Below the pieces are notes generated by a model that was not told where the DNA came from, ran no database searches, and was given only the letters and a program-made list of their open reading frames with translations. Positions 149 to 9,863 of a stretch of 34,790 bases of DNA are shown here, in pieces (position 1 is the first letter of the stretch; the number at the start of each line of letters is the position of its first letter). Where the stretch lies: the NCBI GenBank assembly GCA_014804775.1, contig JAAUZB010000021.1, positions 35,014 through 69,803 on the forward strand, read 5' to 3'. The DNA is from Roseburia sp. (GTDB taxonomy: Bacteria > Bacillota > Clostridia > Lachnospirales > Lachnospiraceae). The position numbers and the translations under genes were made by a program.

Positions 149-1429
149 ATGGACAAAAATGAACCGGTGCAGCCAAATAAAAAAAGAAAGAAAAACCCAA
201 ACCGATCGACAGCAATTCTTTCAATGGTTATGTTTGCTGCTCTTCTGATTGTGGACTTATATGTTATGATAAACCGTCCCGGAAATCATCTTGCACTTGT
301 GGTTATTACACTGTTAGCTTTGATATGCATATATTTTTTTATCGATGCAATTTTGATAGAAATTCACAAGACAGGCAGATCTACGGAAAATCAATATGAA
401 AATATTTTAAAATCAGAAAAAGCATCTTACCTTCTGCTAAAAAGAGCTTTTGAACAGATGGATCGGCTGGAACAATCAAAATCAAAAGAAAAAGAAGTAG
501 AGACGGGTTCTTTGGAAGAAGTTATCAATGCGCAGAAAGCATTGGCAAAAGTTACAATTAACAGAAGCAGAGAAAATGCAGATGCCATTATGAATTCCAA
601 TGATAAGGTTCTCGAAAAAATCTATGACTTGGAAGAAAAAATAGGAAGCAGTCAGGTTGATCAGATTGACAGTCAAAACAATATATTAGAGGAATCTGTA
701 AGGGAGCTGATAGAGAAACAGCAACATCTCATTGCTGAAATAAATGCAATAAAGCAAATGGAGACATCATTAAAGGATGAATTAGTACAGTCTATCAATA
801 ATATCCAGATACAGATACCGGAACCGGTGATAAGAGAAGTTTATAAAGAAGAAACAAGCGCAGTGTCAGACGAACTTCCAGATTTGAGTGGAATGGACTT
901 GGGAGAAAGTGAATCCCTGCTAGATGAGATGCCAGACTTAAGCGGAATGGATTTGGGAGAGAGTGAATCCCTGCTAGATGAGATGCCGGATTTAAGTGGA
1001 ATGGATTTGGGAGAGAGTGAATCCCTGCTAGATGAGATGCCAGACTTAAGTGGAATGGACTTGGGAGAGAGCGAATCCCTGCTAGATGAGATGCCAGACT
1101 TAAGTGAAATGGACTTGGGAGAAAGTGAATCCTTGTTAGATGAAATGCCGGATCTAAGTGGAATAGACTTAGGAGAAAGTGAATCCCTGTTAGATGAAAT
1201 GCCTAGCTTGGGAGAAATGGATTTGAATCTAATGATGGATGAACCGGAGCCAGAACCAGAACCAATGCCGGAACCAGAACCAATGCCGGAACCAGAACCG
1301 ATGCCAGAACCAGAACCAATGCCGATGCCAGAACCGGTGCAAAAGAAAGAAGCGTTTACGCCAGATCCGGCTAATTCAAATAAACTGATGACACCGGAAG
1401 AAATTGCAGCTTTGATTGCAAATCTATAG
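149..1429 (+). CDS. Membrane-anchored coiled-coil protein with 18-aa acidic repeats, PEPEPM tract and C-terminal MTPEEIAALIANL motif
   Basis: ORF track; N-terminal hydrophobic segments, charged coiled-coil-like middle, tandem LLDEMPDLSGMDLGESES repeats. Confidence 0.85.
   Translation: MDKNEPVQPNKKRKKNPNRSTAILSMVMFAALLIVDLYVMINRPGNHLALVVITLLALICIYFFIDAILIEIHKTGRSTENQYENILKSEKASYLLLKRAFEQMDRLEQSKSKEKEVETGSLEEVINAQKALAKVTINRSRENADAIMNSNDKVLEKIYDLEEKIGSSQVDQIDSQNNILEESVRELIEKQQHLIAEINAIKQMETSLKDELVQSINNIQIQIPEPVIREVYKEETSAVSDELPDLSGMDLGESESLLDEMPDLSGMDLGESESLLDEMPDLSGMDLGESESLLDEMPDLSGMDLGESESLLDEMPDLSEMDLGESESLLDEMPDLSGIDLGESESLLDEMPSLGEMDLNLMMDEPEPEPEPMPEPEPMPEPEPMPEPEPMPMPEPVQKKEAFTPDPANSNKLMTPEEIAALIANL
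869..1246 (+). repeat. In-frame tandem 54-bp repeat (18 aa, DEMPDLSGMDLGESESLL), 6 copies plus a degenerate 7th
   Basis: Direct reading of DNA and protein. Confidence 0.95.
1241..1338 (+). repeat. In-frame 18-bp repeat (PEPEPM)
   Basis: Repeated ccggaaccagaaccaatg units. Confidence 0.9.
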
Positions 1430-7674: not shown

Positions 7675-8184
7675 TTATCTGACAATTAAGCTGTTCAATA
7701 AGATTTCCAGATGAGAAGGGTTTTTTGTGTAAAATATGATCCCGTTTGCCGTCTCCTGTAACGTCAGAAATTTATCCTCAAACAGAGGAGAATTTTCCAA
7801 TACATGAACAAGATAAGATCTCGTTTCACTGCTCACCCGCAGAAACAGAGGTTTGTATTCCTCCATAGAAAATACCTCAGCATCTGCCTTATCAAAAAGG
7901 TATTGCAGTTCTTTTTCATGTTCCAGTTGTTCTGCGGTTTTATTCGGAATAAAATAGCCGAACTCATCTTTGGGCATATTCAGTGATTTTATAGCACGCT
8001 GAACCTGCTTGGTCAGAGCATTGGAAGAAGGGTAGAGTGACTCAAAATAATTCATAAAATCCGCGGCAGTACGGAAGTGTTCGTTTTTCCCGTTTTCCAG
8101 AATTTCAGTCATTAGAATTCGTTTTATGATTCCTTCACAGGTTTCCCGTGAGGGATTTTTTCGTAAGGAAGTAGTTTTATCCAT
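7675..8184 (-). CDS. Uncharacterised protein with ArgR-like layout (N-terminal HTH, small C-terminal domain)
   Basis: ORF with helix-turn-helix-like N-terminus; family guess only. Confidence 0.6.
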   Translation of the reverse strand: MDKTTSLRKNPSRETCEGIIKRILMTEILENGKNEHFRTAADFMNYFESLYPSSNALTKQVQRAIKSLNMPKDEFGYFIPNKTAEQLEHEKELQYLFDKADAEVFSMEEYKPLFLRVSSETRSYLVHVLENSPLFEDKFLTLQETANGIIFYTKNPSHLEILLNSLIVR

Positions 8185-8241: not shown

Positions 8242-8270
8242 TTGACAAATAAGGCATAATAAATTATAGT
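8242..8270 (+). promoter_or_regulatory. Promoter of AbiE-like operon
   Basis: TTGACA - 17 nt - TATAGT. Confidence 0.7.
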
Positions 8271-8321
8271 AAAAGAGAAATATGTACCACAAAGAAAACA
8301 AAAGAGCGGAGAAAATGTACC

Positions 8322-8951
8322 ATGTCGGATTCTTATGTGATTAACGAAAAGAGAGAACTGATTTTGCAGCGTGTCAAGGATCATATATACAAAAATGGCG
8401 GTGTCGTAAAGAAGAACCAGCTAAACGAGCTTGGCATTGATTACCGTCGGATTCTTGATTTTGTGGAAAAAGGAGATCTGGTCCGAATTAAAAGCGGATA
8501 CTATACGGTGCGTATCAGCGATTTTTCAGAGGATGAGCTGGTGGCGACGCTGTTTCCGGACGCTGTCCTAAATTTGGAAAATGCACTTTATGCATACGGA
8601 TATCTGGCGCAAAAACCATACGGATGGAAGCTCTCTGTGGACAAGAATACCTCAAAGTCCAGATTTAAGCTGGATTTTCCGCAGGTGATACCTCTGTATG
8701 CCGAGCCGGAAACGCTTAAGCTTGGAGTGACAAAGATTCCGATGGGGAATGCCGAAATGCAGATTTTTGAGAAAGAGCGTCTGATCTGCGAATGTTTGAA
8801 ATATGAGGACAAGATGGAGAGAGAACTCTTTAAGGAAGGATTGCTTGCATTTATCAGAGATCCGAAGAAGGATGTAGCTAAATTAATGAAATACGCCAGA
8901 GATCGAAGAGTAGTCAAAAAAGTGCAGACAATGATAGGAGTGTGGCTTTAA
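8322..8951 (+). CDS. AbiEi-family antitoxin-like transcriptional regulator (type IV TA)
   Basis: N-terminal wHTH (GGVVKKNQLNELGIDYRRILDFVEKGDLVRIKSGYY) and C-terminal IFEKERLICECLKYEDKMERELFKEGLLAFIRDPKKDVAKLMKYARDRRVVKKV. Confidence 0.85.
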   Translation: MSDSYVINEKRELILQRVKDHIYKNGGVVKKNQLNELGIDYRRILDFVEKGDLVRIKSGYYTVRISDFSEDELVATLFPDAVLNLENALYAYGYLAQKPYGWKLSVDKNTSKSRFKLDFPQVIPLYAEPETLKLGVTKIPMGNAEMQIFEKERLICECLKYEDKMERELFKEGLLAFIRDPKKDVAKLMKYARDRRVVKKVQTMIGVWL

Positions 8952-9863
8952 ATGAAACATACGGTTATTAACAAAACCGCATTAAAACAAAAAAGTGATG
9001 TGCTTGGCATTCCCTTTTCAAATCTGCTGGCAGGATTTGTTCTGGAATCACTGATGTATCTGATCGAGACGTCCGAGTTTGCAGATACTCTGTGGTTAAA
9101 AAATGTAAATATTTTCGGTGTGGAACAGTACCGGAAAAAGAATCTGCTCACCTTGGAATTTGCATATTTGACAGATGAGAAGGTGATCAAAAAAGGAGAA
9201 TTGCGTCCCGGACAGAAGCTTTCATTCAACATGGGATGCGTTATGCTGGCATACATACTAAAAAAGGAAAAAGTACCTGAGATCAAATGGATGGCAAGAC
9301 CTTTCATGAAGGAGAATGCTCTGGATATCCAGCTCACAGGTGAATTCGAAGAGATGATAGTGCCGCTTAGGATCCGCGTTGACGAGATTACCGGAGAGGA
9401 AATAATTCCGATGCGCAAGCAGCTTGCGCTTTTTATGGATCCAAAGCAGAATATTACTTATCTGGAATACCCGGTTGACAAAAAGCTTTCTGAGCTGTTG
9501 TTTCTGGTGATCAGAGATATGGAACTGATAGCGGAAATGTCCGTGTATGACCAGATTTATACGATTTTAAGCCAGGAAGCAGTAGATGGGCGTCGTGTAC
9601 GGGAGATGATCCGGGAATATTGTATCAGAGAAAACATTCCTACAGAAAAAGAACGTATGGATACCGTTCTTTCCTATCGACACTATGCCTATATGCGAAA
9701 AAGGTGGGAAAAGTATTTGCGGCATAATAAGAGAAAAGAACCGGACTGGGACGCTGTCATGAAAAAGATAGGCGGATTTCTCCCAAGGGTATGGAAATCC
9801 ATATGCCGGGATGAAATCTTTTTTGGAGACTGGATGCCGGGGTTGGGACGTTTTCTGGATTGA
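8952..9863 (+). CDS. AbiEii-like nucleotidyltransferase-fold protein, catalytic motifs apparently degenerate
   Basis: Follows the AbiEi ORF directly; LGIPFSNLLAGFVLESLMYLIETSEFADTLWLK resembles the region preceding the NTase GG/GS motif. Confidence 0.6.
   Translation: MKHTVINKTALKQKSDVLGIPFSNLLAGFVLESLMYLIETSEFADTLWLKNVNIFGVEQYRKKNLLTLEFAYLTDEKVIKKGELRPGQKLSFNMGCVMLAYILKKEKVPEIKWMARPFMKENALDIQLTGEFEEMIVPLRIRVDEITGEEIIPMRKQLALFMDPKQNITYLEYPVDKKLSELLFLVIRDMELIAEMSVYDQIYTILSQEAVDGRRVREMIREYCIRENIPTEKERMDTVLSYRHYAYMRKRWEKYLRHNKRKEPDWDAVMKKIGGFLPRVWKSICRDEIFFGDWMPGLGRFLD

What the first reader, a model, noticed from the sequence alone, without database searches (positions are those of the whole stretch)
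8322..9863. AbiE-like pair whose toxin half appears to be a catalytically dead nucleotidyltransferase
Seen: a clear AbiEi-like protein is followed immediately by a 303-aa protein. Its LGIPFSNLLAGFVLESLMYLIETSEFADTLWLKNVNIFGVEQYRKKNLLTLEFAYL lines up with the AbiEii/COG2253 pattern (LGI...ERFLYRLS.S.Y.D.FVLKGG.LL......R.T.DIDLL) but has KNVNIF for KGGxLL and LTLEF for RDIDL; the later EKL...R.KD.YDL region reads ELLFLV...AEMSVYDQIY. Established: AbiEii toxicity needs the GS/GG...DxD and downstream Lys/Arg motifs. Inference: a pseudoenzyme with a repurposed role.
Basis: partly seen in the sequence, partly recalled or inferred. Interest (0 to 1): 0.6.

Follow-up and report, generated by a model that had tools for sequence, protein, structure and literature searches.

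The report
Domesticated AbiE pair with dead toxin
In gut bacteria of the Roseburia group, a toxin-antitoxin gene pair normally used against phages has become a fixed part of the chromosome: its 'toxin' lost every residue needed for its chemistry long ago, yet is still preserved by selection, once even after its antitoxin was lost, so it probably has a new, non-enzymatic job.

Summary
An AbiEi antitoxin/regulator (8322-8951) is followed directly by a 303-aa protein, X (8952-9863). X is a true AbiEii relative: profile match over 271 columns (hhalign 99.7%), and a confident AlphaFold model whose only clear PDB hits are DUF1814 nucleotidyltransferases. All four motifs required for AbiEii toxicity are gone; DxD is present in 0 of 83 distinct relatives. 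This is not local decay. X belongs to an old Lachnospiraceae family at a fixed chromosomal place (dacA - [p169] - AbiEi - X - OKR - gmk - yaaR - holB), present in 51 of 62 genus genomes, under purifying selection (dN/dS 0.05-0.21), and absent from the plasmid and phage collections searched. In the AbiEi tree, dead-partner and intact-partner lineages split once (100/97). Dead partners carry a strongly conserved C-terminal tail (FFGDWMPELGRFLD) that intact toxins lack. One two-species lineage lost AbiEi but kept X; another fused AbiEi to X's C-terminal half with the nucleotidyltransferase half gone. Best explanation: a domesticated AbiE pair in which X acts without catalysis through its helical bundle and tail, with AbiEi probably autoregulating at TACCAC-N14-AGYGG. 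The cellular role is unproven. PADLOC labels these as AbiE defence proteins.

The parts
8322..8951 (+). AbiEi-type winged-helix antitoxin/autoregulator, 209 aa
   Evidence: PADLOC AbiEi 2e-60; Pfam AbiEi_4 8e-7; profile hits 6y8q (AbiEi) and 9hlo_A (AbiGI) at 2e-24; recognition-helix region LGIDYRRIL conserved across 29 relatives
8952..9863 (+). X: catalytically dead AbiEii-family protein, 303 aa
   Evidence: hhalign to canonical AbiEii 99.7% over 271 columns; PDB 9hlo_B (AbiGII) E=2e-8; AlphaFold pLDDT 92, pTM 0.86; Foldseek top hits 4o8s/4ok0 DUF1814 NTases
9099..9107 (+). Position of motif I (KGG); reads K50-N51-V52
   Evidence: Canonical relatives 10/10 GG; G-[G/S/A] at this place in 1 of 83 family members
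9138..9158 (+). Position of motif II (R-x3-DxD); reads K63...T67-L68-E69
   Evidence: DxD in 0 of 83 family members, 10 of 10 canonical
9486..9554 (+). Position of motifs III and IV (K..R, +DxxD), residues 179-201; reads LSELLFLVIRDMELIAEMSVYDQ
   Evidence: Canonical EKFDAIL.R.EL..RMKDFYD; Lys, Arg and both Asp not conserved in the family
9816..9860 (+). Family-specific C-terminal tail IFFGDWMPGLGRFLD (residues 289-303)
   Evidence: 76% mean column identity versus 20-43% elsewhere in X; absent from all canonical AbiEii checked
8242..8270 (+). Probable sigma-70 promoter TTGACA-N17-TATAGT (11 of 12)
   Evidence: aligned in related upstream regions
8285..8309 (+). Candidate AbiEi operator TACCAC-N14-AGCGG (degenerate inverted repeat), between -10 and the start codon
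   Evidence: Strict form in 33 of 72 distinct relatives' upstream regions versus 0.015 expected in shuffles; single exact copy in this genome; lacking at the two AbiEi-less loci
7675..8184 (-). p169: divergently transcribed neighbour, part of the syntenic block; weak resemblance to arginine repressor fold
   Evidence: Synteny; absent together with AbiEi and X in three genomes; Foldseek best hit ArgR E=0.011, prob 0.90

Best explanation
X is a pseudo-nucleotidyltransferase: an AbiEii toxin that lost its catalytic site once, in an ancestor of part of the Lachnospiraceae, gained a highly conserved C-terminal tail, and was kept with its AbiEi partner as a fixed chromosomal pair. Shown: family membership by sequence and predicted fold, loss of all four toxicity motifs, a single switch in the AbiEi tree, fixed synteny, purifying selection, survival of X without AbiEi, and a natural AbiEi-X fusion that lacks the NTase half. 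Inferred: AbiEi still represses its own promoter at TACCAC-N14-AGYGG and so sets the dose of X; X does not modify nucleotides or tRNA but works as a binding protein, with its C-terminal helical bundle and DWMPELGRFL tail contacting a conserved cellular partner. AbiEi is a regulator of X rather than an antidote to it.
For: Motif loss: 0/83 DxD, 1/83 G[GSA], motif III and IV residues not conserved, versus 10/10 intact canonical relatives. In the literature, changing motif I Gly49, motif II Arg or either Asp (even D to E), motif III Lys or Arg, or motif IV Asp each abolished AbiEii toxicity, and the motif I, II and IV mutants tested lost GTP binding (PMC3985639). Fold kept. Fixed locus: 51/62 genus genomes, usually one copy; conserved synteny across the relatives found; X distances follow PSP1 (r=0.74) and AbiEi (r=0.84) distances. 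One switch: 85 dead-partner rows form one side of a branch, 100/97; no protein with both the tail and an intact site. Selection: dN/dS 0.05-0.21. X without AbiEi: loci L041 and L044, no AbiEi elsewhere in those genomes; they are sisters (100/99), only 59% identical, dN 0.31 against near-saturated dS 2.1, tail intact. AbiEi of this clade was never found without X in the sampled genomes. Fusion: G202 encodes one 485-aa ORF, AbiEi + low-complexity linker + C-terminal bundle + tail.
Against: No binding partner or phenotype is known. The AbiEi-less lineage is one event in two draft MAGs (94% and 61% complete). The fusion rests on one draft genome (93% complete). X can be lost: three genomes lack p169, AbiEi and X cleanly, so it is dispensable. 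The AbiEi operator is inferred from sequence only and is not recognisable in about half of the relatives' upstream regions. A non-enzymatic toxic activity of X is not excluded by sequence.
Confidence: 0.62

Rival explanations
1. Still a toxin-antitoxin/abortive-infection system: X is toxic by a non-enzymatic route (for example sequestering tRNA or a protein) and AbiEi restrains it.
For: AbiEi is strongly conserved (mean pairwise identity 56% against 32% for X) and AbiEi of this clade is not seen without X; PADLOC scores both as AbiE.
Against: A two-species lineage keeps X with no AbiEi anywhere in the genome and a good promoter directly upstream. Fixed single-copy chromosomal place, no true hit in plasmids, phages or IMG/VR, unlike mobile defence genes. 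All motifs needed for known toxicity are gone.
Confidence: 0.13
2. Cis-control module: AbiEi-X is the head of the OKR-gmk-yaaR-holB-ricT operon and serves to tune these housekeeping genes.
For: X lies 31 bp upstream of OKR here with no terminator found between; synteny is long-lived.
Against: In several relatives a mobA-like gene on the opposite strand, or about 1 kb of other sequence, separates X from OKR; OKR is lost in others (L035, L069, L077, L084) with AbiEi-X kept; some copies have left the operon (L098, L103, L183).
Confidence: 0.1
3. Anti-addiction device: chromosomal AbiEi neutralises AbiEii toxins on incoming mobile elements; X is a tolerated remnant.
For: Weaker AbiEii-family matches occur as second copies in four genomes of the same genus, and canonical AbiE is common in the family.
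Against: X, not AbiEi, is the part kept when one is lost; X is under purifying selection with a conserved new tail. Canonical loci lack this clade's operator motif.
Confidence: 0.07
4. X is still an enzyme that uses other residues in the same fold.
For: The fold is kept with high model confidence; some charged residues are near-invariant (E32, E191, K250, D293, R300).
Against: E32 and E191 have counterparts in canonical AbiEii, so are not new; no acidic pair is conserved on the motif II strand; the most distant relatives share only the C-terminal half and tail, and in G202 the NTase half is replaced by a linker.
Confidence: 0.06

Closest known systems
AbiE type IV toxin-antitoxin system (AbiEi COG5340 / AbiEii COG2253-DUF1814; S. 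agalactiae, PMC3985639)
   Same: Two-gene order, AbiEi wHTH regulator with likely autoregulation at an inverted repeat, AbiEii fold
   Different: All four toxicity motifs lost; new conserved tail; fixed chromosomal locus instead of mobile elements; toxin half kept without antitoxin in one lineage
AbiGI/AbiGII (PDB 9hlo, chains A and B in one entry)
   Same: Both proteins are homologous by profile to the two chains (E=1.5e-24 and 2e-8); chain B keeps GG...DxD in the same register
   Different: Window X lacks the catalytic site; the paper for 9hlo was not found in the library, so its mechanism was not read
JHP933 / H. pylori DUF1814 nucleotidyltransferase (4o8s, 4ok0; PMC4125220)
   Same: Only confident fold matches of the X model (E 5e-5 to 1.7e-4, prob 1.00)
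   Different: 7-9% sequence identity; JHP933 reported as an NTase superfamily protein, X has no catalytic motif
MenAT (M. tuberculosis NTase toxins; PMC10435456, PMC11375011, abstracts only)
   Same: NTase toxins of the same broad kind, paired with antitoxins
   Different: MenT modifies tRNA through an NTase site; X has lost the corresponding motifs

Membership tests
AbiEii/DUF1814 (sequence and fold family) | Homology to AbiEii over the full length | tested here: met
   hhalign 99.7% over 271 columns; PADLOC AbiEii models match 76/76 members; note Pfam AbiEii cut-off not reached by the window protein
AbiEii/DUF1814 (sequence and fold family) | NTase + helical-bundle fold | tested here: met
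   AlphaFold pLDDT 92; Foldseek 4o8s, 4ok0 prob 1.00, TM 0.40-0.44 (query) / 0.51-0.55 (target)
AbiE type IV toxin | Motif I hG[G/S] | tested here: not met
   N51-V52; G[GSA] in 1 of 83
AbiE type IV toxin | Motif II R..DhD | tested here: not met
   K63, T67-L68-E69; DxD in 0 of 83
AbiE type IV toxin | Motif III Lys/Arg and motif IV +DxxD | tested here: not met
   Lys at 7/83, motif IV first Asp not among common residues
AbiE type IV toxin | Toxic to the cell and rescued by AbiEi | not testable with these tools
   Needs expression assay; indirect evidence against from loci with X and no AbiEi
AbiEi antitoxin/regulator | N-terminal wHTH plus C-terminal domain, COG5340-like | tested here: met
   PADLOC 2e-60, Pfam AbiEi_4, PDB 6y8q 2e-24 over residues 18-207
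AbiEi antitoxin/regulator | Autoregulation through inverted repeats at its promoter | tested here: inconclusive
   Conserved candidate TACCAC-N14-AGYGG; binding not testable here
Mobile anti-phage defence system | Patchy distribution on mobile elements or defence islands | tested here: not met
   Fixed housekeeping locus, 51/62 genomes, none in plasmids or IMG/VR; the one phage-labelled hit is 97% identical to R. inulinivorans chromosome over 5.7 kb

The most novel reading that the evidence does not exclude
X is a toxin-derived adaptor: the enzyme core has become a spent scaffold, and the protein works through its C-terminal bundle and the DWMPELGRFL tail by docking to a conserved Lachnospiraceae protein or nucleic acid, independently of AbiEi in at least one lineage. 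This would be a housekeeping-type factor evolved from a toxin-antitoxin system.
Probability: 0.45. Interest if true: 0.75.

Novelty: new variant of a known kind. Interest (0 to 1): 0.62.

Why it matters
It is a clear, testable case of a toxin-antitoxin pair turned into a long-lived chromosomal module by loss of catalysis, with a single switch that can be placed on a tree, a new conserved tail, and natural variants (X alone; AbiEi-X fusion) that act as ready-made experiments. It also shows that a PADLOC model (PDLC02311) matches this family best and labels it AbiEii, so AbiE defence systems are probably over-counted in Lachnospiraceae, common members of the gut flora.

Tried and rejected
Hidden catalytic motif elsewhere in X: relaxed pattern search gave only scattered, unconserved matches. 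Recent pseudogene: rejected by dN/dS and intact frames. Phage or plasmid gene: plasmids none, IMG/VR none, one phage record (MT837737) is mislabelled chromosomal DNA. Viral fold relatives: nothing convincing. AbiEi as a wider regulator: one exact operator copy in this genome; extra copies in other genus genomes are few and resemble the reversed-pattern control in number. Operon control of holB: weakened by opposite-strand inserts. Tail outside the family: the class-wide hits checked outside the family are all canonical without tail. Literature: no paper found on inactive AbiEii or on this pair.

Full report
Observation. The window encodes an AbiEi-type protein at 8322-8951 and, with no gap, a 303-aa protein (X) at 8952-9863. 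AbiEi is secure. X is below Pfam's AbiEii cut-off (E=0.16) but matches PADLOC AbiEii PDLC02311 at 5e-94 over its full length. The window is ordinary chromosome: trmB, dacA, p169 (reverse strand), AbiEi, X, an Orn/Lys/Arg decarboxylase family protein (OKR), gmk, yaaR, holB, a PSP1/ricT-like gene and rsmI. Names of these neighbours rest on my reading of their sequences.

X is an AbiEii relative. A profile of 76 X relatives aligns with a profile of 10 canonical AbiEii proteins over 271 columns at 99.7%. It matches PDB 9hlo chain B (AbiGII) at 2e-8, and AbiEi matches chain A of the same entry (AbiGI) and S. agalactiae AbiEi 6y8q at about 2e-24. The AlphaFold model is confident (pLDDT 92, pTM 0.86). 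Its only PDB hits below E=0.001 are the H. pylori DUF1814 nucleotidyltransferases 4o8s and 4ok0.

The active site is gone. In S. agalactiae AbiEii, changing motif I Gly49, motif II Arg or either Asp (including D to E), motif III Lys or Arg, or motif IV Asp each abolished toxicity (PMC3985639). In the X family, DxD is found in 0 of 83 distinct members and G[GSA] in 1; motif III and IV residues are not conserved. All ten canonical relatives keep GG, DxD, the motif III Lys and KDxxD. In the window protein the positions read N51-V52, K63, T67-L68-E69, L182, D189, S197-V198..Q201.

It is a lineage, not a decayed copy. X occurs in 51 of 62 genomes of the genus, nearly always once. A scan of one genome per GTDB species returned 80 loci whose titles name Lachnospiraceae or related Clostridia labels, including isolates such as R. 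inulinivorans DSM 16841, R. faecis M72, R. porci and Lachnobacterium bovis DSM 14045. Most share dacA - p169 - AbiEi - X - OKR - gmk - yaaR - holB - PSP1. Distances of X follow those of PSP1 (r=0.74) and AbiEi (r=0.84) over 1275 pairs. Close pairs give dN/dS 0.05-0.21 for X and 0.004-0.04 for AbiEi. In the AbiEi tree the 85 rows with a dead partner form one side of a branch (100/97) and the canonical rows the other; one change suffices. Class-wide search shows a score gap (267 to 119 bits), and the nine highest-scoring relatives outside the family are all canonical.

A new conserved tail. Residues 289-303 (IFFGDWMPGLGRFLD here) have 76% mean column identity, against 20-43% for the rest of X. 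The tail is in nearly all dead partners and in no canonical one. In distant members the NTase half is no longer recognisable while the tail persists, mostly in the same synteny.

Two natural experiments. (i) Loci L041 and L044 have X with no AbiEi; a genome search finds none elsewhere, and X sits directly behind a promoter. They are sisters (100/99) yet only 59% identical in X, with dN 0.31 against near-saturated dS 2.1. The simplest reading is one loss of AbiEi followed by long selection on X alone. (ii) In G202 AbiEi and X form one 485-aa frame: AbiEi, a low-complexity linker in place of the NTase half, then the helical bundle and tail. Conversely, the whole p169-AbiEi-X block is cleanly missing in G032, G042 and G043, so it is dispensable.

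Regulation. A TTGACA-N17-TATAGT promoter (8242-8270) is followed by TACCAC-N14-AGCGG (8285-8309), between the -10 box and the start codon. The strict pattern occurs in 33 of 72 distinct relatives' upstream regions against 0.015 expected by shuffling; a looser form is in 42, and in none of 10 canonical loci. In some relatives it is a clear inverted repeat, TTACCAC...GTGGTAA. It is absent from the two AbiEi-less loci. The pattern is unique in this genome. This suggests, but does not prove, AbiEi autoregulation.

Mechanism. Shown: homology, fold, loss of catalytic residues, fixed locus, selection, tail, X alone, fusion. Inferred: X is a binding protein working through its C-terminal bundle and tail, with AbiEi setting its level. 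Rivals are a non-enzymatic toxin, operon control, anti-addiction and an enzyme with rebuilt site; each is weighed in its field.

Comparison. By sequence and fold X belongs to AbiEii/DUF1814; by the features that define the AbiE toxin (motifs I-IV) it does not, and toxicity was not testable. It is best called a domesticated, catalytically dead variant of AbiE. No paper on such a family was found in the library searched, which lacks most subscription journals. All 76 family members match the PADLOC AbiEii model PDLC02311, so automatic defence counts probably include them.

Noticed in passing
L126 / L190 (genome G202): Natural in-frame AbiEi-X fusion of 485 aa in which the NTase half is replaced by a low-complexity linker; same synteny as the window.
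   Followed up: partly
window 7675-8184: Divergent 169-aa conserved neighbour (p169), absent together with AbiEi-X in three genomes; weak fold match to arginine repressors (E=0.011).
   Followed up: partly
L033 6931-7572, also L034, L037, L046, L071 between X and OKR: A gene that looks like mobA (molybdenum cofactor guanylyltransferase, by eye) sits on the opposite strand between X and OKR, so AbiEi-X is not always co-transcribed with the downstream operon.
   Followed up: partly
L152 (GenBank MT837737.1): Record named Bacteriophage sp. is 97% identical to R. inulinivorans chromosome over 5.7 kb and carries trmB-dacA-AbiEi-X-OKR: mislabelled bacterial DNA.
   Followed up: yes
L183 (genome G128): Earliest-branching dead partner; keeps the gap-free spacing of canonical AbiEii but reads TGLL and VPIEF at the motif places, has the DWMP tail, and lies outside the conserved synteny.
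   Followed up: partly
window 149-1429: Predicted protein with tandem repeats of about 18 aa (DEMPDLSGMDLGESESLL) and a proline-glutamate-rich end.
   Followed up: no
L174 (genome G123): Canonical-clade AbiEi copy with an internal TAA and no partner ORF found: a probably broken AbiE locus.
   Followed up: no
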